Below are positions 10,201-63,363 of a DNA stretch of 64,000 nucleotides, in pieces (within the stretch, counting starts at the first letter, position 1; each line of letters opens with the position of its first letter). The translations under genes and the position numbers were made by a program. The stretch spans positions 31,931-95,930 of the IMG/VR virus record IMGVR_UViG_3300027861_000016. The stretch is one strand, 5' to 3'. The notes under the pieces were generated by a model. It did no database searches. It was not told the origin of the DNA and was given only the letters and a program-made list of their open reading frames with translations. The stretch is from a virus.

Positions 10201-12549
10201 TTACTTTTGTCCTACAACTTTATTTTTTAGAGCTGTGGCATTCTTCTCTTTCTCAATCTTCTCTTTAGACTTGATCTCTTCTCTCTTCAAGTTTCTATCT
10301 TTCTCTTTATTCAAGTTATCAGAATTTATCTTAGACTGCTCAAGAGCAGTAGAAGCATAATCAAATACTTCTACAGTTCCGCTATCTTGAGTGTCTGTAT
10401 CGAATCCAGCAGATTTCATTGCCTCTACTTGTATCTTATTCTCTCTATCTAATTGATTTTGGTCTGCTTCAAATTGTTGAGCAGCTTGTTGTAATTGTTG
10501 AGCACCTTCTCTTTCAGCTTCAGCTTGTTGTTGTTCTGCTGCTTTCTTATTAGTCTCAGCATCTTTAATAGCATGAGATATTTCAGCAATAGAATTAGAT
10601 TTAACTAAATCAACTATACCTGAGAATTCAACCATTCCAGATGATAAAGCTGTCTCACCTAATCTTTCTAACTTATTAAGTATGTCTCTATCTTTGCCAG
10701 AGTTAGTAATGAATACTCCATAATCAGAATCGGGAAACTTTTCCATATCTATATCCATAAATACTCTAGATATATCATTCATTACATAAGTTAGTTTCTT
10801 CTTACCTTGATAAGCAAATTTAGATACTTCTAATAATGCTGTAAGAACATCTTTCTTAACTATGTTATGTTGGTAGAACCAAGGTTCGGTTATGTATGTT
10901 GAATTGGCTATTGCTGCTTGAGTTCCAGAAGCTGTTTCAGAAGCTTTAGTTTGACCTTCTCTTTGTGGAGTAATACCAATTACTTTATCTATCAATTGTT
11001 CAATCTTACTAAGTATATTAATATACTGCCCTACAGATTCCGACATAGCCATATCTATAGATTGGAATTGATTAAAGTTTGGTTGTTGTTGATTCTTTCC
11101 TTCTTCTAATGAATTAATAACTGCTATATCCATGTTAGAAAACATGTACATCCATTTATTCATATCTATACCTTCTGATCTAGGTATCTGTGCCATATCC
11201 ATTACAAACTTCTTACCTTGAGCTTTATTCATTTCTCTTTCAAGATTGAACCAAGTAATCATGTACATATATTGAAATGGTTTTAACAAATCAACAACTG
11301 ATGTAGGAAGAGTATTTGTAGTATTATGTACTTTACCTATGTAAGGTAATTGTACTTTTCTAGGATTATCCATTGAACGCCCTTGATATTCTAAAGCTGA
11401 TATATTTAGATAAAGATCAGACTCTACTTTAGTTCCTTGCCATACTTCTGGAATCCAAGTCCAGTCTATAGTAACTCCTAATTCTTTCATCTCTTCAGTT
11501 AATTTGAAAGATTCATCAACCATCATAGACTCTTCAGGATTTTCAGGATCTAATAGAAATCCTATCTTCTTTAGTGACTTCCAAGTAACTGTAGATACAG
11601 TGTATAAATTATTATTAGTATTATCCTCATTAAACATATCTAATTTATGTTTAGGTAAAGCATAACCTACTGGTTGATTTACATTAAATGATAATCCTAT
11701 TTCCCCCTTATCTAATTTTCTAACTTCAGAATCAGACATGAACTCACCGTACTCATCTATAATCTGTCCAACAGTCATTAGTCTATCTTCTCTAAACCAA
11801 TCACCATCTTGAATAGTGTTGTTAGAAGGATTCTTATCATAATCACAATATAGAGGATTACAAACTCTTACATTAGGTTCACCATTAACAATTCCTACAT
11901 GAGCAATCTCATGAGAAGATATTAAAGCGTGTTCCCATAAATCTTGGAATACATTGTGTAAGTCTAATTCATATTCTAAATACTTCAATAGATCATTAGC
12001 CCATACTTCTCTAATATCTTGAACTGAATAATTAATCCATTTCTTTAATTCTTTGAATGATTGAGGTTCTCCTTCTTGTTGTTCCGGAGGATTACCAAAT
12101 TCACCTAAAGCTTTTGCAAATTCAGATTGAGCTACTTTCTTAACCATATCAGCTACCATCTTTTCTTTGATAGTAACAGCATTACCATTTACAGCAATTG
12201 CTGAATAGTTGAAGGGTCTAGATAACTCTTCACCTTTTAAAAGATTAATCTTATTTATAATAAGGTTATAATCTCTCATCTTAGAAGGTTGATTCAAATC
12301 CATAGATGAACCATCCATACCATAAGGCTGAGTTACATAGTTGAAATCTGCTGGATCATATATAGAATTGACTAGTCCATAGTTTGCTTTCATTTTAGTC
12401 TTACCTGAACGAAAGCTCATATCAACTCCTGACATTCCTAATATACCGTCCACATTCTGTTCTTGCCATTTCTTAGTGTTCTTCACTGATTGTGAAACAG
12501 CTTGAGCAGGTCTTCCAATATTTTTATATATTTTTTTTGTAGTATCCAT
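10201..12549 (-). CDS. Portal protein
   Basis: 782 aa, the expected size of a crAss-like portal, which forms the dodecameric DNA channel at one capsid vertex. The N-terminus is disordered and basic, the body is mixed with a helical clip/stem, and the C-terminus (about residues 640-782) is a long Gln/Glu/Lys-rich coiled coil (AAEQQQAEAEREGAQQLQQA) that could form the barrel in the capsid. Its ATG overlaps the TerL stop codon, giving the standard TerL-portal pair. The call rests on length, gene order and this architecture. Confidence 0.88.
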   Translation of the reverse strand: MDTTKKIYKNIGRPAQAVSQSVKNTKKWQEQNVDGILGMSGVDMSFRSGKTKMKANYGLVNSIYDPADFNYVTQPYGMDGSSMDLNQPSKMRDYNLIINKINLLKGEELSRPFNYSAIAVNGNAVTIKEKMVADMVKKVAQSEFAKALGEFGNPPEQQEGEPQSFKELKKWINYSVQDIREVWANDLLKYLEYELDLHNVFQDLWEHALISSHEIAHVGIVNGEPNVRVCNPLYCDYDKNPSNNTIQDGDWFREDRLMTVGQIIDEYGEFMSDSEVRKLDKGEIGLSFNVNQPVGYALPKHKLDMFNEDNTNNNLYTVSTVTWKSLKKIGFLLDPENPEESMMVDESFKLTEEMKELGVTIDWTWIPEVWQGTKVESDLYLNISALEYQGRSMDNPRKVQLPYIGKVHNTTNTLPTSVVDLLKPFQYMYMITWFNLEREMNKAQGKKFVMDMAQIPRSEGIDMNKWMYMFSNMDIAVINSLEEGKNQQQPNFNQFQSIDMAMSESVGQYINILSKIEQLIDKVIGITPQREGQTKASETASGTQAAIANSTYITEPWFYQHNIVKKDVLTALLEVSKFAYQGKKKLTYVMNDISRVFMDIDMEKFPDSDYGVFITNSGKDRDILNKLERLGETALSSGMVEFSGIVDLVKSNSIAEISHAIKDAETNKKAAEQQQAEAEREGAQQLQQAAQQFEADQNQLDRENKIQVEAMKSAGFDTDTQDSGTVEVFDYASTALEQSKINSDNLNKEKDRNLKREEIKSKEKIEKEKNATALKNKVVGQK

Positions 12550-15365
12550 TAATATCTATAGTTTGTATTTTGAGTTGGATTATTTGTAAAATAGTTTTCT
12601 AAGTTATCGAAGAACGCATCTACTTTAGTTTCTTTAACCATGTCTACTCTTACTTTATAATTATCTAACTTATGTGTTATTACTAATAACATTGCAATGA
12701 TTCTATCAAAGTTACCAGTATCATTATAATTAATAAGTTCATCTAGTAATGGTAACGAATAAATCTTATTAAGGTTTAGTTTTCCGTCTTGATCTTCTTC
12801 CATTAACCAATCTCTAAGATACATTTCCATCTCTAACTTAATATCCTTAGTCATATGAATACCATATTGTCTGTTTACTTTAGATCCTTCTGTTGCTTTT
12901 AGAATAGTAGGAGTCTTCTTTAATAGATGTAAACATCTTTTAAATTCTAAATGATATTTTAATGTGTTCCTCTCATTCTCATATAAGTCTTTTGCATTAT
13001 AATACATCAAAAGCTTTCTAACATTTTCATGATGTTCATGTGCTGTATCAGGTCTAGCTGTATATTCAGCTACTAACCAATGATTAATCTGATCTAATCC
13101 TCCAAATGTTTTATAGATATACGTAGATCCTAATGAAGTTGTTGTGGATTGATCCTGATCATATGGATCTGTTCCTGCTATGTAAAGACCAAACGGAATA
13201 TTCCCTTCATTATCTTTTTTAGGATGTTCCCATATTTGTACACAGCCTGTAGTATCATCAGTCTTTTGCATATTATATTTACAAGGAACTAATTTACCTT
13301 TTAGATCTGGTTTCCATATTACTTCATTAGCTGTATCTGGTTTTATAAATAATTCACCACATTGACCTTGAACTAATCCATCAGTTTGTATAGCTGATTG
13401 AACCCATCCTCTTTGTTCCATTAACTCTGCTGTGGGAAATATATTTGAGTTACTAACATGAAATGCTTCAGTTGGTACATCAGGGTTATTCTGTATCTCA
13501 GCTTCATATTTGTATCTATCCTTTTGATTTAGTAGCTTTTCACGTTTATCTTCTGTAAACATACTAGCTCTAGATAGATCAATGACTCCATTAGAATCTC
13601 TATATTCATCAAACTTAAACTGATAAGGTATAAAGAATCCTACATTCCCATTACCTTCCCAAATATCTTCAAAACATAAAGCATCATATCTTTCAGGATG
13701 AAAGAACATATCTTTGATTCCTTCTGATACTCCTTTACCCATATCTCCACCAGTCCCTGTTGCATAGATAGTACCAAACTTATTTAGTCCATCTTTAGTA
13801 GCATCTGTAAGTGCTGAGAATGTTTCTATAATATTAGAGAAGAATCCTACTTCCTCTAATACTATTAAGTTAGGTCCAGTACCATTACCTGCTAATGGGT
13901 TATCAGCAAATGTTCTATGATGTATTTTAGATCTAGACCCTTTAGTTACCCAGCCTCCAGGAAGTTTCTGATCAAACGCTGCTTCTAAGAATTTACCTGG
14001 CATTAGAGATCCTCTACTTTGTTTAGCAAATGGAGAAGGTCTTTCAATACCATTGAAAGTCATATTTCCTTTTAAATTCTCTAAGATTAGTTTAGTCTTA
14101 TTTAGTAAATCTCCAGAGTACTTGGAATCAATAGCTCCTACTAATGTTTCAGAAGAAGGTATAGTACCTGTATTCTTAGCATTTAGAAACATATCATAGT
14201 CAGTGGCTCCATCAAATAAATAGTTATGAACTATCATAGATCCTGCACTTCCCCAAGAGTTATGTGTAACTACATAATCATTGACTAAGAACAAAGAATC
14301 TTTATTATCCACTCTAATACATACTGAGGGTTTTATATCTAAAGGTTTAATATCATGTATTGCACACCAAGAGACTCCTAGCTCTGGAAGATACGAAGGT
14401 ATATCATATTTATAATGCTTTATACTACAATCATAATCATAAAAGAATTCAGTTCTAAAATTATCTAGTTCTAACGTTACTTCCTCTTCTGTTTTTCTGT
14501 CTCTTACTGTCCATAAATGTCCACCACCACATGTTACAGTTCTACCGTCCCTCAAAGTAACTTCATATTGTAACTGATCGTCAAAATCAATTCTCTCTAA
14601 AATAGTAGTTGGTTTACCGTCACCTCCAAAGATAATATCCCCTACCTTTACATTTTTAATAACTCTCTTTGAACCATCAATATAATGTAATAAACTATCT
14701 TCATGTAGATCTTTTCCCATACGTCTAGCTTGTATATCCACTACGTTAGAGGCATTATTCTCATATAAAGGTTTACCATAATTCTTAGGATGTATCCTTC
14801 TTAAATAATCTCTAGGATGTACAAAGGTTTTAAACTTACCGTCCTTCTTATAAGCTGTTGGGGGTATAATAGCAAGTTCTAATTTTCTTTTATATTGTTC
14901 TTTATCTTTATTACTAAGTTCTTCTAATTCTTTTACTATATGTAAGCAAGTGATAGTATCATCCCCATCGAATCCAGAGAATCCTCTAGACTCCATATAG
15001 ACATAAGCTTTCTCCCATTCTATATCTCTAAGAAATGGACTACCTAATGATTTACCTTTAGAATTAGGTAGGTTCAAAAGTATCATACAGAAATTAGTAT
15101 AGAAATATAAATTACCCGGCATCCATTTACCTTCAACCCAATATCCTTCTATACACTTTCTCTTCTGTTCTTTCCAGTAATTTGTGTATTTATTTGTATG
15201 TGGATTCATGTAACTAGGAAGTTCTATAATGAACTTATTCCTATCTACACCTTTACTATGTAAACCTCTTTCAGCATATTTCCAGTAGTCACAACTAGCC
15301 AGTCTTTTATGTAATTTATCAGCAGGTACTATTTCAATTCCTGATCCGCTTTCCACTTCAGCCAT
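12549..15365 (-). CDS. terL: Terminase large subunit with in-frame mini-intein
   Basis: 938 aa as translated, 787 aa after removal of the intein. It powers DNA packaging at the portal and cuts concatemers. The ATPase Walker A (ARRMGK|SWGSAG) is split by the intein at residues 219-369. The Walker B is LIVLEEVGFF at about residues 500-509, with the coupling motif YATGTGG just after. The C-terminal RNase H-like nuclease begins at LYIAGTDPYDQD, with D733 and D736 as probable metal ligands, and ends with a DELINYNDTGNFD region holding further acidic residues. The gene overlaps its upstream neighbour by 37 nt and meets the portal start at one shared base. It must splice to rebuild the Walker A lysine-serine pair, so an unspliced product should be inactive. 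Confidence 0.95.
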   Translation of the reverse strand: MAEVESGSGIEIVPADKLHKRLASCDYWKYAERGLHSKGVDRNKFIIELPSYMNPHTNKYTNYWKEQKRKCIEGYWVEGKWMPGNLYFYTNFCMILLNLPNSKGKSLGSPFLRDIEWEKAYVYMESRGFSGFDGDDTITCLHIVKELEELSNKDKEQYKRKLELAIIPPTAYKKDGKFKTFVHPRDYLRRIHPKNYGKPLYENNASNVVDIQARRMGKDLHEDSLLHYIDGSKRVIKNVKVGDIIFGGDGKPTTILERIDFDDQLQYEVTLRDGRTVTCGGGHLWTVRDRKTEEEVTLELDNFRTEFFYDYDCSIKHYKYDIPSYLPELGVSWCAIHDIKPLDIKPSVCIRVDNKDSLFLVNDYVVTHNSWGSAGSMIVHNYLFDGATDYDMFLNAKNTGTIPSSETLVGAIDSKYSGDLLNKTKLILENLKGNMTFNGIERPSPFAKQSRGSLMPGKFLEAAFDQKLPGGWVTKGSRSKIHHRTFADNPLAGNGTGPNLIVLEEVGFFSNIIETFSALTDATKDGLNKFGTIYATGTGGDMGKGVSEGIKDMFFHPERYDALCFEDIWEGNGNVGFFIPYQFKFDEYRDSNGVIDLSRASMFTEDKREKLLNQKDRYKYEAEIQNNPDVPTEAFHVSNSNIFPTAELMEQRGWVQSAIQTDGLVQGQCGELFIKPDTANEVIWKPDLKGKLVPCKYNMQKTDDTTGCVQIWEHPKKDNEGNIPFGLYIAGTDPYDQDQSTTTSLGSTYIYKTFGGLDQINHWLVAEYTARPDTAHEHHENVRKLLMYYNAKDLYENERNTLKYHLEFKRCLHLLKKTPTILKATEGSKVNRQYGIHMTKDIKLEMEMYLRDWLMEEDQDGKLNLNKIYSLPLLDELINYNDTGNFDRIIAMLLVITHKLDNYKVRVDMVKETKVDAFFDNLENYFTNNPTQNTNYRY
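14259..14711 (-). other. Mini-intein (class 3 type) inserted in TerL Walker A
   Basis: 151 residues, D1 to N151, between GK and SWGS of the Walker A. It has intein blocks but no homing endonuclease: block A DLHEDSLLHYIDG with KVGD, block B GGGHLWTV, block F VCIRVDNKDSLFLVND, block G VVTHN followed by Ser+1. Residue 1 is Asp, not Cys or Ser, and W67, C131 and T149 form the WCT signature of class 3 inteins, in which the block F Cys makes the first thioester. Removing it joins GK to SWGSAG in frame. It is read as a single open frame with base composition like the host gene. Confidence 0.9.
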
Positions 15366-23915: not shown

Positions 23916-24860
23916 ATGAAAATAAAAAGATTTAATAGCTCAGAAGGTAATGTGTGGAAGTATGTATTTGACTTCAAAGATGCAATTGCAGAAGCAATAT
24001 TATATAAATATGATACATTCACAAAAAGAACAGTATTATGCATCTCTGTACAATCAGGATGTCCAGTAGGATGTAACTTCTGTGGAACAGGAAAACAATT
24101 CATTAGAAACCTAACATCTGATGAAATAGTGAATCAAGTACGACATGTACTAAAAGATATGAATATTGACACTGATGACATAGAAAGATTCCAAATCATG
24201 TTCATGTCAATGGGTGAACCTATGTTAAACTTCGATAACGTTAAATGTTCTATTCATGACTTACATTATCTTTACTCAAATACTGAATTACTATTATCTA
24301 CTATTGGTGTATTAAATGCTGAAGTAGTAGCTGATCTTATTACTTTAAGTAGAGCAATTGATAAAGTAGGTCTACAATTTTCAGTACATGAAGCAATTGA
24401 TACTAAAAGAGATGAATTAATACCCTTTAAAAACAAATTAACTCTTCGTCAAATAAGAGACTTTGGTATACTTTGGAATCAACAAACAAATAGACCTGTT
24501 TATATCAATTATTGTGTAACAGATACAAACCAAAGCGAAGAAGAGTTATATAGACTAATGGATCTATTTCCTCCAGCCATATTCAATTTTACATTCTCTG
24601 TAGTATGTTCAGACGATGAAACTATGAAAGATAAAGGGTATAAAGACTTAGGCGCAATAAATAAAATATCTTCTTTATTCTTATCCAATGATTACAATGT
24701 CAGAGTATTTAATCCAGCAGGACAAGATGATATTGGAGGAGGATGTGGACAACTATGGTATGTGCAAGAATGGATGAAAAAGAATAAAAAATGTTTAACC
24801 AACACTAAATATGATGAACAGTTAAAACTTGGAATACCTTTAGATAAAATAATAAACTAA
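23916..24860 (+). CDS. RlmN/Cfr-like radical SAM RNA methyltransferase
   Basis: 314 aa. The radical SAM cluster motif CPVGCNFC (C49, C53, C56) binds 4Fe-4S. C42, seven residues before it, matches the resolving Cys of RlmN (C118) and Cfr. C277 in GGGCGQLWY matches the methyl-carrying Cys (RlmN C355). Other family marks: MSMGEPMLN (SAM-binding glycines) and FNPAGQDDIGG. The family methylates adenine C2 or C8 of 23S rRNA A2503, or tRNA. The first 10 residues begin inside the family's SSxG region, so the usual N-terminal accessory domain is missing. Whether it modifies rRNA, tRNA or phage RNA cannot be seen. Confidence 0.88.
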   Translation: MKIKRFNSSEGNVWKYVFDFKDAIAEAILYKYDTFTKRTVLCISVQSGCPVGCNFCGTGKQFIRNLTSDEIVNQVRHVLKDMNIDTDDIERFQIMFMSMGEPMLNFDNVKCSIHDLHYLYSNTELLLSTIGVLNAEVVADLITLSRAIDKVGLQFSVHEAIDTKRDELIPFKNKLTLRQIRDFGILWNQQTNRPVYINYCVTDTNQSEEELYRLMDLFPPAIFNFTFSVVCSDDETMKDKGYKDLGAINKISSLFLSNDYNVRVFNPAGQDDIGGGCGQLWYVQEWMKKNKKCLTNTKYDEQLKLGIPLDKIIN

Positions 24861-56276: not shown

Positions 56277-56312
56277 ACAAAGGGAGGGCTAACGCCTTCC
56301 CTTTTTAATGTT
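56277..56312. terminator. Bidirectional terminator at the convergent junction
   Basis: AAAGGGA-GGGC pairs with GCC-TTCCCTT around CTAAC, with A residues before and T residues after, so it works on both strands. It ends the plus block and the minus-strand fibre gene at 56318. Confidence 0.85.
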
Positions 56313-56317
56313 CTCGA

Positions 56318-57637
56318 TTACTTTTTAACATTTAAACTATAAGGCTCGAAGTATAAAGTAGAGCCATCACTCATTTTAATCCAGTTTGTAATAGTAACTC
56401 TTTGGTGATCTTCTCCTGAGTCTTGCAAAGCATTTTCCATATCAAGATTAAATTGTGCTTGACTAATACTTCCCATCTCTCCATCACCTTTTAGATCGTA
56501 TTCTGTAGAACTCCAACCATAAGAAGTCAGATTATCATATCCTATAAATGGGTTAGCTGTATCCATGAAATCCATAGCATCTGAACCATATCCTGCAATA
56601 TCCTGCATAACAGTTAATCCTAGATTAGTAGCCCATGTACCATTTGTGATTGTCTTAGTAAGTAAAGAATGGAAGTTAGCATTGGATGTTTCTCCTCCAC
56701 TACCTTTAGCTGGATATACAATTGTTTTAAAGAAATCAAACTGAGAAGAAGATGCTATAAATGCTGCATAATCTGTTTGATATAAACTTGTAGGAGATTG
56801 ACTCAATACACTACTTCCTATATAGTAAATAGGATCAGCTTCATCTTCAAAGATTACAAACATACATTTCTTATTTGTAACAGTTCCTATCTCTACACTT
56901 GTTGTTACAACACCTTCATTACTAGTGATTCTATCTGCTGTTTTCCAATTACTTTCTATATATTCTTTAGGAAATAAAACAAATCTTTCTTGGATATTTT
57001 GAGATAGATATTCAGAAGCATCTCTTAGATTACTATTTACTACCCCTGTAGATATCTCTAACATTCTTCCTTGATAGTTAGGATTATCATTTCTATACGA
57101 TGCGAACCAAGAAGTAATTCTTTCTTTAGCACTTGTTAAAGATGGGCCTATAAAAGAAGTTGTATCATATACAACAACAACGTCTGTATCAATAGGTATA
57201 TCATAAGATAAATCTACACCTCCTTCAACAGGAATAACACTTGTAATATCTGCTGATATTTTATATTTATTTTTAGTTGTAACTGTTGGATCTATTTCAA
57301 CTATAATATCTCCTTCACCAACTACTTCTGGTAATTGAGAAGGTTGAACAACCCTGGCTATATTATCTGATTTAACAACTCCGACTTTAGCTTGTTCATC
57401 TGTAGCTAATACAACAAAACCTTGCTTCTCAGATAATGGTTTAGAAGGATCATCTTCATAAGCTTTATCTGTTACTTCCCCTTTAAATCCTATACCTTCA
57501 AATAGATTTCTAAAAGCTGTTTCATCTGGTCTATCATCTGTTAAAAATCTACTACCTCTCTTTAAAGGTGAAGATGTCTTTTGGAAATACCAATCCTTTG
57601 ACTTGATAGCTCCCTTTACTAATTTATTTCTACTCAT
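56318..57637 (-). CDS. Virion fibre/spike-type protein
   Basis: 439 aa. An N-terminal virion-anchoring-like part (residues 1-60, GRFLTDDRPDETAF-like RGSRFLTDDRPDETAFR) is followed by beta-rich domains with VVVLATDEQAKV and VVVYDTTSFIGPSL, and a C-terminal YGWSSTEYDLKGDGEMGS part. The overlap with the glycosyltransferase gene (4 nt) and position in the fibre cluster suggest a receptor-binding or fibre component. No enzymatic motif is seen. Confidence 0.6.
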   Translation of the reverse strand: MSRNKLVKGAIKSKDWYFQKTSSPLKRGSRFLTDDRPDETAFRNLFEGIGFKGEVTDKAYEDDPSKPLSEKQGFVVLATDEQAKVGVVKSDNIARVVQPSQLPEVVGEGDIIVEIDPTVTTKNKYKISADITSVIPVEGGVDLSYDIPIDTDVVVVYDTTSFIGPSLTSAKERITSWFASYRNDNPNYQGRMLEISTGVVNSNLRDASEYLSQNIQERFVLFPKEYIESNWKTADRITSNEGVVTTSVEIGTVTNKKCMFVIFEDEADPIYYIGSSVLSQSPTSLYQTDYAAFIASSSQFDFFKTIVYPAKGSGGETSNANFHSLLTKTITNGTWATNLGLTVMQDIAGYGSDAMDFMDTANPFIGYDNLTSYGWSSTEYDLKGDGEMGSISQAQFNLDMENALQDSGEDHQRVTITNWIKMSDGSTLYFEPYSLNVKK

Positions 57638-58248
57638 CGTATTATGTATTTAACTTTGCGTTTTCTAATATTTGAAAAATCTTTCTTTTGATAACATACT
57701 GTATTATTCATCTTATAGCATTTACCTTTTGTTTGAAAAGTATCTATTGTAATATGATCTATAGGTCTATCCATCTTTTCAATCTCTTCTATATATTCAT
57801 CATAACAATTACTATTGATAGCGTACGCATGACAACAGAAACTATTGGTTAATTTGGACCATGAGTTATTATATTTCTTAACTCTTTCCTTATCTATAGT
57901 TCCAAAGTGTAACATATCCCATTCATCGCTTTTTAACCACTTCAACCTGTCCAACATTCTAGAAGCATTTACTGTAAACTCTATATCGTCTTCAAATATT
58001 AGAATACTTTTGTAATTATTCTTCTTAGCATCCTCTAATATCTTTAATGTAGTCAGAGCTAATGCAGCAGAATTCTTATTCCACATATCAGCTCTTTTTA
58101 CAAAGTCTATCTCTTCTACATCTCCATCTATAGCTTTTACAACTTCATAAGTAACACCTATAGATTGAAGCTGTTCAGCTACAGCTTCTAATCTATCAGG
58201 TCTCCTTTCTAGGTTTATGAGGTATATATGTTCAAATTGATTGCGCAT
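57634..58248 (-). CDS. GT25-type glycosyltransferase (LPS galactosyltransferase-like)
   Basis: 204 aa. IYLINLERRPDRLE, then ILIFEDDIEF with the DxD-type metal site, and HAYAINSNCYDE match glycosyltransferase family 25. It could decorate a virion fibre with sugar or alter host surface glycans. It sits between two fibre-type genes and overlaps the 439-aa gene by 4 nt, so it is translated with virion genes. Acceptor unknown. Confidence 0.85.
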   Translation of the reverse strand: MRNQFEHIYLINLERRPDRLEAVAEQLQSIGVTYEVVKAIDGDVEEIDFVKRADMWNKNSAALALTTLKILEDAKKNNYKSILIFEDDIEFTVNASRMLDRLKWLKSDEWDMLHFGTIDKERVKKYNNSWSKLTNSFCCHAYAINSNCYDEYIEEIEKMDRPIDHITIDTFQTKGKCYKMNNTVCYQKKDFSNIRKRKVKYIIR

Positions 58249-58249
58249 A

Positions 58250-60445
58250 TTAATCTATTTTTATAGAGCTTACTAATTTTAATTGTGATAATGCACCTAC
58301 TACTACTTTTTTTACATTTATTATATAAGTAGCAGCAACTTCTATACTTACAGTGTCAGCACCTATTATAACATCAATAGCAGAACTATCTGTGTTTTTA
58401 ACATAGAAGGATGTTTCTATGTTTGCAGGTAATAAAATAAAACCATATAAAGCTGATGCTCCTGCTTCTATATAAGGGATTGTATGTTTTAGATATAAAG
58501 AGTAATCTAATACTATTGCTCCTGCTGATGTTACTATAATATCTGTAAGAATATCACCAGCAATTAACGTAGTTCCATCATATATATTATTTGCAGTATA
58601 ATCTTCTATATATGCTTTATTTACTGCTAATGTCTCGAAAGCAAGTATATTACAGTTGTCACCCATACTCAACTCTGATATAGCAACATTACTTGTGATT
58701 GTTGTATTATTATTACCTATTTTACTATTGCTAATAAGGGAAGTGAAAGTAAAAGAACTATTACCTTGTCCTATGATTAAATCTGTTACATTTCCAGAAG
58801 TAGGTATAATTGATATATTATCATTATAGTTACCTAATTTTATGTTTGTAAAATCAGCATCCTGTAGAGTAATATAACTATTACCAACATTCATTTGCAT
58901 AGCTACTACATTAGCATTACTTATAGTGATATTAGTACAACCATTATCTATTAGCACATCATCTATTGTTGTAGTAGATATATCTTCACCTATCGTTATA
59001 AGATTACAGTTATTACCTATAGTTAATCCTTCACAATTTGCTTTTATTGTAATATTAGTATTACGATCACCAATAGTATTTCCAGTACTTTGTATAATTA
59101 CTAAGTCCAAGTTACTACAATTCTCACCAATAGTGGACTCTTGTAGACCTTCTATATTGGAAATACTTAACCTACTTCCTATGTTACATAAATCCACATT
59201 ATCTAGGTAAGAAGATCTACATCCATTTTCTAAAGTGGTATAGTCTATACTTGTTAAACTTAGTTCATATCCATTTTTAATAGTACTTGATGATACATTA
59301 CCAGCTAATGTATAATTGGAAGATATGTTTGAAGTATTTATTATTCTAAAATAACCACTACTATCTTTAATATTGGTGTTATTTACATCCATATAGATTC
59401 CTAAAATATCTTGGAAACTAGATTTATCAGAATCTAATATATAACTATTAGAGCAACCAGCACTAAAATTTAGGTTTGTACTATTATCCACATGTACACC
59501 TGAAAAAGCACCATCTTGAAATTCTATATTAAGACAGTTCGTAAATGTGATGTTTGGATATGTTAGTGTTGATTCTTGATAAACATTTTCCCTATTGTTT
59601 ATTATAATATCTTGACAAGTAGAATCAAAAGTAAGCCTATCTATAACTGTATTACTTCTAATAATATTACTATTAAGACCATTTACAGAGAATGTAGCTT
59701 TAGGGAGCCACTCATCTAATTCCTTATCATCAAATATTAGATAGTTTATATCTGCAAGAGATTCTATTCCTGTAACATCTTTTAATACTATATTTAGTAT
59801 AGTCCCGTTATTATAAGTAAAAGTATCTCCTTTTAATAAATTGATATTACCTGCTGTAAGATCTAAATCAGTTATATCTTTAGTTCTAGAAGCTGCTACA
59901 TCCATTAAACCTCTTCTATAATAAACTCCTCTAAAATCATAATAGGTCTCTAGATTGTTTTCATGATCTTTTCTATAAATTACTTCGCCTGTTCTTGCAA
60001 TTAATTGTGTATCTGTATCAACATAATTAGCAGTAAAATCAAATACGATCATATCATAAATATGGTTATATGATTTAACAACTGCATGTAATTCATGATC
60101 ACTTATAGCTATAGCTTCAAATTGTTCTATCTTCACTACATAATCATTAGAAGCAGTGTTTAAGATAGCTGGATCTGCTGTGGGTATGTAATGTTTACAT
60201 TGGTAATCAAATACATATTTTTGACCAATAACTAAACTATTAGTATCAGCTAAGTTTATTAAATCACCATAAACAATACTAATAGGAGCACTTCCACCTA
60301 ATTGAGGCCAAAGTGTTTCTATAATATCATTCATTGCTGTCTGTTCAGCATCAGCGGAAATCTCATTATTGGTGTTTGTATATACTAAAGCTTCTACAGC
60401 ATCTAGTAAGGCCGGTTTAGTTCCGTAATCAGTTCCTTGACTCAT
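58250..60445 (-). CDS. Beta-helix tail fibre/spike protein
   Basis: 731 aa. After an N-terminal anchoring region (TKPALLDAVEALVYTN, residues 10-25) the residues about 230-640 are a long series of Asn/Ile/Thr-rich turns (e.g. TIGNNCNLITIGED, NTIGDRNTNITIKANC) like the coils of a parallel beta helix, as in spikes that bind or cut host polysaccharide. The C-terminus has an ITLQDADFTN-type turn, then a compact domain. No lyase or glycosidase residues can be picked out by eye. It begins 1 nt before the GT25 gene. Confidence 0.7.
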   Translation of the reverse strand: MSQGTDYGTKPALLDAVEALVYTNTNNEISADAEQTAMNDIIETLWPQLGGSAPISIVYGDLINLADTNSLVIGQKYVFDYQCKHYIPTADPAILNTASNDYVVKIEQFEAIAISDHELHAVVKSYNHIYDMIVFDFTANYVDTDTQLIARTGEVIYRKDHENNLETYYDFRGVYYRRGLMDVAASRTKDITDLDLTAGNINLLKGDTFTYNNGTILNIVLKDVTGIESLADINYLIFDDKELDEWLPKATFSVNGLNSNIIRSNTVIDRLTFDSTCQDIIINNRENVYQESTLTYPNITFTNCLNIEFQDGAFSGVHVDNSTNLNFSAGCSNSYILDSDKSSFQDILGIYMDVNNTNIKDSSGYFRIINTSNISSNYTLAGNVSSSTIKNGYELSLTSIDYTTLENGCRSSYLDNVDLCNIGSRLSISNIEGLQESTIGENCSNLDLVIIQSTGNTIGDRNTNITIKANCEGLTIGNNCNLITIGEDISTTTIDDVLIDNGCTNITISNANVVAMQMNVGNSYITLQDADFTNIKLGNYNDNISIIPTSGNVTDLIIGQGNSSFTFTSLISNSKIGNNNTTITSNVAISELSMGDNCNILAFETLAVNKAYIEDYTANNIYDGTTLIAGDILTDIIVTSAGAIVLDYSLYLKHTIPYIEAGASALYGFILLPANIETSFYVKNTDSSAIDVIIGADTVSIEVAATYIINVKKVVVGALSQLKLVSSIKID

Positions 60446-60448
60446 TTC

Positions 60449-61021
60449 TTATACGTTAAAATTAGTTCTTTCTTCATTTATAAATTCATTTAAGGTAAAT
60501 TCTCCATAAGCTTCTGGTATAGTTGGTCCAGTATTACAGATAGTTCCTCCTACTAAAAAAGCAGTGCATTCATTTTCACCATCAGCTATCATAGTACCTA
60601 TACCACTACAACATTCCTCACATTCTGTAGTTTGGAAGTTAATACCAGCAATAGATAAAATATCATCAAAGTATTTTAAATAGTCCTGACCGTACTTTAT
60701 TCCTATACATGGAAGATTATCTTTTACACAGTCTATTTTAAAAGGTAAATTAGATACACAGTTAGATAGAGTACTTTCTCTTTGAATATATCTTCTTATA
60801 ATCTTTACATATTCTAATAAGAAATAGTACATATTTACAGCTTTGTAGTATTTCAAACTACATTCTGTATTACCTTTTAGATCTTCTTGATAGGCTTTAT
60901 GTAAGAGTAATTCAATATCTTTTTCAACTAAATCAAAAGCTAATCTATCAAGATCATCTTCTTCATTAGGTTCTACCTTATTTTTATAAGGATATTTTAA
61001 GTTGTTTATGAACATCCACAA
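60449..61021 (-). CDS. Cys-containing virion-region protein
   Basis: 190 aa, helical first half (ELLLHKAYQEDLKGNTECSLKYYKA) and a Cys-rich part (TECEECCSGIGTM). It overlaps the 293-aa gene by 16 nt. Cys pairs also occur there, so the two may form disulfides or bind metal together. Function unknown. Confidence 0.6.
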   Translation of the reverse strand: MWMFINNLKYPYKNKVEPNEEDDLDRLAFDLVEKDIELLLHKAYQEDLKGNTECSLKYYKAVNMYYFLLEYVKIIRRYIQRESTLSNCVSNLPFKIDCVKDNLPCIGIKYGQDYLKYFDDILSIAGINFQTTECEECCSGIGTMIADGENECTAFLVGGTICNTGPTIPEAYGEFTLNEFINEERTNFNV

Positions 61022-61887
61022 TCTGAATTAACTGTTAATTTACTTGTATCTCCACAACCACCATCTAGACAGTAGGTGCGATCACACATCTTAGCAATCT
61101 TAGCTAGTACTTGATCTATAGTAGCTAACTCATCCAATTTAGTATCTGTAAGAGCTGAGTATTTATTATTGAATCCATACTCTGATTGTAATTTCATGAA
61201 GTAAGTCTCCTTTAAAGCAAACATTCTTATTACTTTTACTTCAGCACTAGAGTCATATTCACAAGTACAATCTCTTGTATCTTGACATAATAAATCTTCT
61301 ATGAATGCTGTAAAACAAGCATCTAATTTACAGAAAGTATTTAGTACATATTCTGTGTGAGTCTCATTATAATCTACAGATACTATAAATAATCCTATTT
61401 CCTCAAATGTTATAGTAGCAGAAGTATTAGCTGCTAAAGCTGTACTTTCTACAATAGTGTCTCCTTGTACATTCTTAATACCATAAGTAGCATCTATTGT
61501 AGTAGATTTGTTACTCATTGAGAATGTATCACAAGCAATATAATCAAAAGTAATAAATTCTGAGGCTGGTATGATTACTTCATAAGTACTAGTTAATCCT
61601 GTTTCAACTTCTGTAATTACCACATCTACAGTGTAATCACCTTGTTTACTTAAAGTAACAGTATAACCTAAATTGTCTTGATCTGTTGTACTTGTAAAAC
61701 CTCTTGAATAAGGAGTTAGTTCTATATTATCTGGATCACTTCCTGAATACTCTATAGTATAACTATAAAGTGGATTTAATCCTGTTATTGTAGGCATTAC
61801 TTGTACATCACTATACAAAGCAAATTCATCTACTCCTCCTAATTGGTCTTGTGATGAATATATTGAAAACGTTGTATTTATAGCCAT
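61006..61887 (-). CDS. Ig-like structural protein with Cys-rich C-terminus
   Basis: 293 aa. The N-terminal 110 residues look like two Ig-like beta sandwiches (DEFALYSDVQVMPTITGL, GDYTVDVVITEVETG), followed by a helical part and a Cys-rich end (DGGCGDTSKLTVNSDCGCS). The layout suits an adhesion or fibre-tip protein. It overlaps the spanin-like gene by 10 nt. Confidence 0.6.
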   Translation of the reverse strand: MAINTTFSIYSSQDQLGGVDEFALYSDVQVMPTITGLNPLYSYTIEYSGSDPDNIELTPYSRGFTSTTDQDNLGYTVTLSKQGDYTVDVVITEVETGLTSTYEVIIPASEFITFDYIACDTFSMSNKSTTIDATYGIKNVQGDTIVESTALAANTSATITFEEIGLFIVSVDYNETHTEYVLNTFCKLDACFTAFIEDLLCQDTRDCTCEYDSSAEVKVIRMFALKETYFMKLQSEYGFNNKYSALTDTKLDELATIDQVLAKIAKMCDRTYCLDGGCGDTSKLTVNSDCGCS

Positions 61888-62267
61888 AATCCTATTAATG
61901 TTGTTATAGTTAAAATCATTATTATAGTTTTACCTATTTTAATAACTTTGGTTTGTTTTTTTATCTTATTATCTTTATGTTTTATTATCTCATCTCTATT
62001 ATCTATAGCATCTTTTAAGTTGATAGTGATCTCTTCATTAATACTATCCGATAGATTATAGTAATAGTTCTGACTCTTTAAATTTTTGATCTCGACTAGA
62101 GCTGTATCATACTTCTCAATATATTCTAATCTTTCAAGATTAGACCTAGCTAATATCTCCAAAGTATCTCTAGAGAAACAATATCTATAAGTGGTCTGTA
62201 CAGAAGAATATGAGCTTATTGAGAGAATCATTAGTAACAAAAATAACACCGTCTTTAGCTTCTTCAT
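61878..62267 (-). CDS. Spanin-type envelope protein (outer component candidate)
   Basis: 129 aa. A signal-like N-terminus (TVLFLLLMILSISSYSS) is followed by a charged coiled-coil region and a C-terminal membrane helix (TIIMILTITTLIGLWL). There is no lipobox, so it is not a classical o-spanin. It overlaps the 97-aa gene by 83 nt in another frame, as spanin genes often do. Probably acts in disrupting the outer membrane at lysis. Confidence 0.5.
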   Translation of the reverse strand: MKKLKTVLFLLLMILSISSYSSVQTTYRYCFSRDTLEILARSNLERLEYIEKYDTALVEIKNLKSQNYYYNLSDSINEEITINLKDAIDNRDEIIKHKDNKIKKQTKVIKIGKTIIMILTITTLIGLWL

Positions 62268-62478
62268 ATCTTTCAGTTATTATTATAGTATCTCTAATTT
62301 TATCTATAGCTTGTAAAGAATCTATTGTCTTATTTAAAGTATCTAATTCTTTATACTTCTCATTCAATACTTCTACTAAACTATCATTAGGTGTCACAGG
62401 TACATTTGTTCTTATTTTAATAAAAGTACATATAAGAACTACACTAATACTTAGACATATTACTATAAAGTATTTCAT
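62185..62478 (-). CDS. Spanin-type inner-membrane protein (Rz-like)
   Basis: 97 aa with one N-terminal membrane helix (FIVICLSISVVLICTFI) and a periplasmic coiled coil (VLNEKYKELDTLNKTIDSL), the layout of i-spanins. It lies right after the holin and partly over the 129-aa gene. Together they probably span the periplasm. Confidence 0.55.
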   Translation of the reverse strand: MKYFIVICLSISVVLICTFIKIRTNVPVTPNDSLVEVLNEKYKELDTLNKTIDSLQAIDKIRDTIIITERYEEAKDGVIFVTNDSLNKLIFFCTDHL

Positions 62479-62687
62479 CGTTTAGGTATAAGGTTATTAA
62501 ATAGATCTGTGAAGAATGAGTCTTTAGCCATAATGAATGCACAGCCAGCTCCAACTAATAAGATAGAAGCCCAAATACTCACAGGAGCTATAATACCAAA
62601 CATTCCTAAGAATATTTGTAATAAACCAGCAATAGATAGAATAGTTCCTATCATTGTAGTAATCCAATTTTTAAGTGCTTTTTTCAT
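62475..62687 (-). CDS. Holin-like membrane protein
   Basis: 70 aa; two membrane helices (TMIGTILSIAGLLQIFLGMF and VSIWASILLVGAGCAFIMA) and a basic C-terminus (NLIPKR). It starts 1 nt after the amidase gene, the usual endolysin-holin pair. It should form holes letting the amidase reach the wall. Confidence 0.7.
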   Translation of the reverse strand: MKKALKNWITTMIGTILSIAGLLQIFLGMFGIIAPVSIWASILLVGAGCAFIMAKDSFFTDLFNNLIPKR

Positions 62688-62688
62688 A

Positions 62689-63363
62689 TCAAATTAAGTT
62701 TAGTTCAACCTTCTCCTCTACTCTACGTTGAGCTGACCAAGTTAGTTTCGCAACTATATCTCTAAAATGAGGATCATTCATTTTCACAGCATCTTTTCTA
62801 TTAGTATAGAATCCTATCTCTGGTAATATCCAAGGACAATGTGTTCTTACTAATTCCCAAAAGTTCTTTTCTTTATCTAAATCTTTTATAGATATGTCCC
62901 AGAAATCCTTTCTAAAATTCATATCTAAGTTCTCATAGAAGCTTCCAAATATGTCTGCTATTTTATCAGACTTAGTTTGTCCTATAGATGTAAATATCTC
63001 TACACCATTAGCATAAGCTGTACTAGCTGCATTACCATGTAATGAAATACCTATAGGATAAAATCCCTTCTTCCTTAAATCAAAGATTATTTTATTAGCT
63101 CTATATGTCTTCTCTCTTACAGATATATCTTCATCTTCTGGATTTATGATTACGAAATTACTATTAGAGTATAAATTAATATCTACTACTCTAGCAATAA
63201 TATCTCTACCATAAACCCATTCTTTTATTTGGAAATCATTTGCTTTATTATCTTGGAAGACTGGCCCTCTTTTACCAGGAGTATCTTTACCATGACATAA
63301 TGAATACAACCAAACTGTTTTCCCAGGTCCTTCTAAATGTTCTTTTATCATCCTACTCATCAC
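62689..63363 (-). CDS. N-acetylmuramoyl-L-alanine amidase (endolysin)
   Basis: 224 aa, Amidase_3-type zinc enzyme. Ligands: H24 in SLCHGKDT, E48 in KEWVYG, H109 in SLHGNAAS; the catalytic E182 is in LPEIGFYTN. It cuts the bond between muramic acid and L-Ala in peptidoglycan. No signal peptide, so export needs the holin. It overlaps the coiled-coil membrane protein gene by 11 nt. Confidence 0.93.
   Translation of the reverse strand: MMSRMIKEHLEGPGKTVWLYSLCHGKDTPGKRGPVFQDNKANDFQIKEWVYGRDIIARVVDINLYSNSNFVIINPEDEDISVREKTYRANKIIFDLRKKGFYPIGISLHGNAASTAYANGVEIFTSIGQTKSDKIADIFGSFYENLDMNFRKDFWDISIKDLDKEKNFWELVRTHCPWILPEIGFYTNRKDAVKMNDPHFRDIVAKLTWSAQRRVEEKVELNLI

What the first reader, a model, noticed from the sequence alone, without database searches (positions are those of the whole stretch)
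57634..58248. GT25 glycosyltransferase embedded between fibre genes
A GT25 enzyme with its DxD site lies in the late fibre operon and overlaps a fibre-type gene. Most phage glycosyltransferases are early and act on DNA or host LPS; late co-expression points to glycosylation of the virion fibre itself, perhaps to escape antibodies or bind mucin.
Basis: partly seen in the sequence, partly recalled or inferred. Interest (0 to 1): 0.6.

Follow-up and report, generated by a model that had tools for sequence, protein, structure and literature searches.

The report
Fibre-linked glycosyltransferase in crAss-like phage
A bacterial virus related to the gut crAss phages carries a sugar-adding enzyme wedged between two of its fibre-type genes; close relatives of this enzyme sit beside fibre genes in several unrelated phages, which suggests, without proving it, that these phages sugar-coat their own fibres.

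Summary
A 204-aa GT25 gene (57634-58248, minus strand; Pfam E=1e-12; EDD motif; confident GT-A model closest to COLGALT1, mimivirus R655 and bacterial beta-1,4-galactosyltransferases) lies 1 nt after a 731-aa beta-helix-type fibre gene and overlaps the next gene by ATGA. It is the penultimate gene of the late operon of a 96-kb crAss-like phage. New evidence: the enzyme falls in a well-supported GT25 clade (99/96). All phage members with a readable non-GT neighbour sit beside fibre or tailspike genes, in crAss-like phages, a 636-kb huge phage and T4-like or unclassified contigs. Other phage GT25s sit mostly in sugar-biosynthesis clusters. A related crAss-like phage keeps the same operon with fibres but no GT, so the gene is an accessory of certain fibres. 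Best reading: a late enzyme that glycosylates the fibre made with it (0.5). Main rival: it alters the host glycan that the fibre binds (0.25). Acceptor and sugar are unknown. Antibody escape or mucin binding has no support here; no isolate or gut crAss-like record in the phage collection gave a hit to the GT. New variant of a known kind (phage virion glycosylation); interest 0.5.

The parts
57634..58248 (-). GT25 glycosyltransferase, 204 aa
   Evidence: PF01755 E=1e-12; AlphaFold2 pLDDT 92, pTM 0.90; Foldseek to COLGALT1 TMq 0.79, mimivirus R655 0.74, beta-1,4-galactosyltransferase 0.67; fibre-linked clade 99/96
57985..57993 (-). EDD motif (residues 86-88), GT25 metal/nucleotide-sugar site
   Evidence: Codons GAA GAC GAT; invariant in 26 relatives
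58250..60445 (-). 731-aa fibre protein: conserved ~50-aa N-terminal anchor, an 'xYxxLxxL...YxxxDY' domain, then an Asn-rich beta-helix-type repeat region with Cys-x-x-Ile steps; proposed acceptor
   Evidence: Homologous N-terminal region in L021 and L004 fibres, anchor shared with two further crAss-like phages; composition NSTG 0.35, KER 0.09
56318..57637 (-). 439-aa protein coupled to the GT (ATGA overlap); structural/fibre-type, role unknown
   Evidence: 32% identical homologue in the same place in G012; that homologue has a phrog_22680 hit over the fibre-like GGTTGQ stretch; model unusable, pLDDT 33
60449..61021 (-). 190-aa Cys-rich protein, conserved upstream neighbour of the fibre
   Evidence: Homologues in the same order in G012, G010 and G011
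61006..61887 (-). 293-aa protein, conserved upstream neighbour
   Evidence: Homologue in G012 and a protein in the same place in G011
56279..56304 (.). Stem-loop between the converging early (+) and late (-) transcription units; T-run on the late side also
   Evidence: Terminator scan and sequence read of the minus strand

Best explanation
The gene encodes a small soluble GT25 (galactosyltransferase-like) enzyme translated late from the same message as the virion fibre. It most likely transfers a sugar from a host nucleotide-sugar pool onto the newly made fibre protein in the cytoplasm before assembly, probably on its beta-helix region, so that released virions carry glycosylated fibres. The enzyme travels with particular fibre types as an accessory gene. 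Shown here: the family, the intact motif, the predicted fold, operon position, conserved order, and the fibre-linked clade. Inferred: activity, protein acceptor, which fibre, which sugar, and the benefit (protection or altered binding of the fibre).
For: Translation-coupled order fibre-GT-439 kept in two crAss-like phages whose MCPs are about 45% identical. In a 636-kb huge phage a fibre with a related N-terminal domain directly precedes a 37%-identical GT. The 8-member clade (99 SH-aLRT; 99/96) has fibre or tailspike genes next to the GT, or next to its tandem GT partner, in every phage member; the label needs 2 changes on the tree against 7.7 for shuffled labels, 0 of 500 shuffles as low. 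No other GT was recognised in the module. Fold neighbours include protein-acting COLGALT1. Mycobacteriophage virions are known to carry GT-made glycans on capsid and tail tube (PMC12619734 citing Freeman 2023).
Against: No glycan has been seen. GT25 enzymes also build bacterial LOS, and the model matches bacterial beta-1,4-galactosyltransferases too. Fibres with the same N-terminal domain occur without GT25 (L106, L107, Sphingomonas phage PAU gp99), so the fibre family does not need it. The two crAss-like GTs are not sisters inside the clade. No shared acceptor motif was found across all GT-linked fibres.
Confidence: 0.5

Rival explanations
1. The GT modifies the host surface glycan (LPS/LOS or capsule precursor) that the neighbouring fibre binds, so that progeny do not re-adsorb to spent cells or debris, or so that other phages are excluded. 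It co-travels with the fibre because both concern one receptor.
For: GT25 is best known from LOS synthesis; bacterial beta-1,4-galactosyltransferases match the model; many other phage GT25s sit in sugar clusters. A host-wall role was proposed for a glycosyltransferase encoded beside a HipA-type kinase gene located between portal and MCP in Gratiaviridae (PMC8008677).
Against: No membrane partner, flippase or second glycan enzyme recognised in the module; expression at the very end of the late operon leaves little time to change surface glycans (inference).
Confidence: 0.25
2. The GT glycosylates a different virion protein, such as the coupled 439-aa protein or the capsid, and the fibre is only a neighbour.
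For: The 439-aa gene overlaps the GT; both occur together in G012 and neither was found in the other crAss-like records searched, most of them fragments. The mycobacteriophage precedent is capsid and tail tube.
Against: In L004, L023 and L042/L044 the GT is beside fibres without a 439-family gene.
Confidence: 0.15
3. The GT glycosylates modified bases in phage DNA.
For: Phage GTs that decorate DNA are well known (PMC12619734).
Against: No thymidylate-synthase/hydroxymethylase family gene in the record and none seen among the early proteins scanned; late fibre-operon position. The TET/JBP search was uninformative because no control rang.
Confidence: 0.04
4. A passenger (moron) gene with no role tied to fibres, placed there by chance.
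For: It is accessory: missing at the syntenic place in G011.
Against: The recurrence next to fibres of a single GT25 clade in several phage types and intact motifs despite great divergence.
Confidence: 0.06

Closest known systems
Mycobacteriophage virion glycosylation (Freeman et al. 2023, known here only as cited in PMC12619734 and PMC10877033)
   Same: Phage-encoded glycosyltransferase and proposed sugar on virion proteins.
   Different: There capsid and tail-tube subunits were shown to carry glycans. Here a fibre is the proposed target, the phage group differs, and no glycan has been shown. Homology between the enzymes was not tested.
Collagen galactosyltransferase COLGALT1 and mimivirus R655 (GT25)
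   Same: Same family and fold (TMq 0.79 and 0.74); COLGALT1 acts on protein.
   Different: 204-aa single domain, about 20% identity; acceptor hydroxylysine needs a hydroxylase, none seen here. R655 activity itself was still untested in PMC9546862.
Bacterial beta-1,4-galactosyltransferases of GT25 type (LOS synthesis)
   Same: Size about 210 aa, fold (TMq 0.62-0.67).
   Different: Known from glycan synthesis; the fibre-linked clade has its own C-terminal signature (D-x-[IV]-T ... G-[KN]-[SC]-[YF] ... S-x-[IL]-R in most members) where other phage GT25s have SDI.
GT25s in phage sugar clusters (L027-L048, L018)
   Same: Same family, phage-encoded.
   Different: Sit with fucosyltransferase-like, other GT or sulfotransferase-like genes, not fibres; separate on the tree.

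Membership tests
GT25 (PF01755) | Profile score above the curated cut-off | tested here: met
   48.8 bits, cut-off 24
GT25 (PF01755) | INL-x-R-x-x-DR N-terminal motif and EDD motif | tested here: met
   INLERRPDR and EDD in the sequence; N12, R19, E86-D88 conserved
GT25 (PF01755) | GT-A fold like solved GT25 structures | tested here: met
   pLDDT 92 model; COLGALT1 TMq 0.79; a prediction, not a solved structure
GT25 (PF01755) | Sugar transfer activity | not testable with these tools
   Needs biochemistry
Phage virion glycosylation system | Phage GT gene next to virion genes | tested here: met
Phage virion glycosylation system | Glycan on a virion protein, lost when the GT is lost | not testable with these tools
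   No virion available
Crassvirales (the phage) | crAss-type MCP, portal and terminase | tested here: met
   phrog_11589 E=1e-93, phrog_6547, phrog_6681; MCP 30-34% identical to gut crAss-like phages
Seroconversion gtr cluster | GtrA flippase / GtrB beside the GT | tested here: not met
   No such family among the ten genes of the module
DNA hypermodification GT | Pyrimidine hydroxymethylase in the genome | tested here: not met
   No PF00303 match, controls positive; the record may be incomplete
DNA hypermodification GT | TET/JBP oxygenase in the genome | tested here: inconclusive
   No match, but no control rang

The most novel reading that the evidence does not exclude
A dedicated lineage of GT25 enzymes moves between unrelated, probably Bacteroidota-infecting, phages together with a class of Asn-rich beta-helix fibres bearing a Cys-x-x-Ile ladder, and adds a sugar to a repeated residue of that ladder (possibly the cysteines, or Asn/Ser/Thr beside them), giving regularly sugar-studded fibres.
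Probability: 0.12. Interest if true: 0.8.

Novelty: new variant of a known kind. Interest (0 to 1): 0.5.

Why it matters
Phage virion glycosylation is known from a few cases on capsid and tail tube. A GT lineage tied by gene order to receptor-binding-type fibres in several phage groups, including crAss-like phages, would mean that the host-contact part of the virion is itself sugar-modified. That would affect host recognition, fibre stability and the interpretation of fibres produced recombinantly without their enzyme. It also gives a directly testable pair: one fibre, one small soluble GT.

Tried and rejected
Single-protein searches of viral contigs with the GT, the 439-aa protein and the fibre found nothing; the alignment query worked for the GT. 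tblastn of both neighbours in the phage collection found nothing. DNA modification: no hydroxymethylase; the TET/JBP search gave no usable answer. The 439-aa model from two sequences is unusable (pLDDT 33), so no fold claim is made. Cys ladder: C-x-x-[IVLF] takes 35 of 52 Cys in four GT-linked fibres against 6 of 39 in GT-less ones (Fisher p=7e-7), but this was noticed after the fact, sequences are not independent, and L042 fibres (GT-linked) lack it. A pattern scan meant to test it gave only one usable fibre, at a contig end, so it remains a lead. NxS/T sequons are not enriched. Homology of the module to crAss001 gp21-gp30 fibres and lysis proteins: none convincing, so head fibre versus tail fibre is undecided. 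L088, a bacterial MAG member of the clade, lacks its N-terminus and looks like a broken copy. Literature searches found no report of GT25 in phage fibre operons in the held library.

Full report
What is there. The ORF at 57634-58248 on the minus strand is an intact 204-aa GT25 protein, the only PF01755 match in the 95,930-bp virus record of which the window is bases 31931-95930. Its EDD motif (57985-57993) is invariant among 26 relatives. An AlphaFold2 model from 25 aligned sequences is confident (pLDDT 92, pTM 0.90). Its nearest solved structures are human COLGALT1 (TMq 0.79), mimivirus R655 (0.74) and bacterial beta-1,4-galactosyltransferases (0.62-0.67); its nearest predicted viral structures are mostly annotated as GT25 or as glycosyltransferases. 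So the family call is solid; the sugar and the acceptor are not known.

Where it is. The record is a crAss-like phage: major capsid protein, portal and terminase match Crassvirales-type families. Minus-strand genes include the virion and lysis genes, plus-strand genes replication and nucleotide metabolism. The last minus-strand genes run amidase, small membrane proteins, 293 aa, 190 aa, 731-aa fibre, GT, 439 aa, then a stem-loop that can end both converging units (56279-56304). The GT starts 1 nt after the fibre's stop and its own stop overlaps the next start (ATGA). This makes late co-translation very likely, though no transcript data exist.

Is the fibre link more than one genome's accident? 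Three lines say yes. First, a crAss-like relative (G012, MCP 45% identical) has the same order 552 aa, 202 aa, 887-aa fibre, GT25, 481 aa with 1-3 nt gaps around the GT. Second, an unrelated 636-kb huge phage (LR756504.1) has a 567-aa beta-helix-type fibre with a related N-terminal domain directly before a 37%-identical GT25. Third, of 71 distinct GT25 proteins gathered from viral and cellular contigs, the window protein falls in a clade of eight (99 SH-aLRT; 99/96 in a careful tree of 35, present in 98% of bootstrap trees). Its seven phage members come from the two crAss-like phages, the huge phage, a T4-like contig with two GT25 genes in tandem followed by a tailspike-like gene (L023; portal phrog_213 and terminase phrog_2 in L110), and two contigs where the GT lies between two fibre paralogues (L042, L044). 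Every member with a readable non-GT neighbour is next to a fibre or tailspike gene (high Asn/Ser/Thr/Gly, low charge); the first L023 GT has a contig end upstream and the second GT downstream. Most other phage GT25s sit in sugar clusters with fucosyltransferase-like, other GT or sulfotransferase-like genes; one, L017, is next to structural-looking genes but lies outside the clade. The fibre label was assigned by reading neighbours, and clade members were collected with a query that included three of them, so the count is descriptive rather than a formal test.

Accessory nature. G011, another crAss-like contig, keeps the upstream genes and two fibres with the same N-terminal anchor but ends the operon without GT or 439-aa gene. 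G010 shares the upstream genes and anchor but its contig ends inside the fibre. G016 (L106) carries three fibres of this domain family and no GT25. The two crAss-like GTs are not sisters in the clade: the G012 enzyme pairs with one of the T4-like contig's enzymes (99/96), which fits exchange between phages. The GT is thus an optional partner of certain fibres. None of the crAss-like records in the phage collection gave a hit to the GT.

How it probably works. The simplest reading is that the enzyme, made with the fibre, adds a sugar to it in the cytoplasm using host nucleotide sugars. A rival that the gene order cannot exclude is that it changes the host glycan that this fibre recognises. The fold neighbours include both a protein-acting enzyme and glycan-acting ones, so the fold does not decide. 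The fibre itself could be a head or a tail fibre: crAss001 has both kinds (PMC10172136), and its gp21-gp30 show no convincing homology to the module. Antibody or mucin roles are not supported by anything found.

Against the known. Phage virion glycosylation exists (mycobacteriophage capsid and tail tube, cited in PMC12619734, and PMC10877033). GT25 as a family and phage-encoded GT25s are known. What appears new is a GT25 lineage tied to fibre genes across phage groups, including crAss-like phages; I found no held paper that reports it, but the library is incomplete. A Cys-x-x-Ile ladder in four of the GT-linked fibres is a lead for the acceptor only.

Noticed in passing
56279-56304: GC-rich stem-loop with T-runs readable on both strands between the converging early and late units: likely bidirectional terminator.
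   Followed up: partly
61878-62687 and 62689-63363: Lysis cassette: Amidase_3 endolysin, small membrane protein (holin-like), and two overlapping genes that resemble a spanin pair (weak phrog_739 hit).
   Followed up: no
12549-15365: 938-aa terminase gene: the main terminase match begins only at residue 441, with DnaC-like and primase-like ATPase hits at 193-325; unusual length, possible insertion or fusion.
   Followed up: no
L023:206-1457: Two tandem GT25 genes before a tailspike-like gene in a T4-like phage contig; they are not sisters on the tree.
   Followed up: partly
L088:5770-6210: Fibre-clade GT25 lacking its N-terminus next to an htpG-like gene in a Cytophagaceae MAG: remnant of phage DNA or a binning error.
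   Followed up: partly
L018:7357-16877: 484-kb phage cluster with two GT25s, several sulfotransferase-like genes and other sugar genes.
   Followed up: no
L055, L058, L064, L070 and similar (about 760 aa): GT25 domain inside a conserved 760-aa protein followed by a 386-aa gene in many viral contigs; a separate, tight clade.
   Followed up: no
23916-24860: Radical-SAM-like protein (E=1e-5, below Pfam cut-off) among early genes.
   Followed up: no
58250-60445; L021:8038-10701; L004:8267-9970; L157:3-977: Cys-x-x-Ile ladder in Asn-rich beta-helix-type fibres, enriched in GT-linked ones; tested only after the fact.
   Followed up: partly
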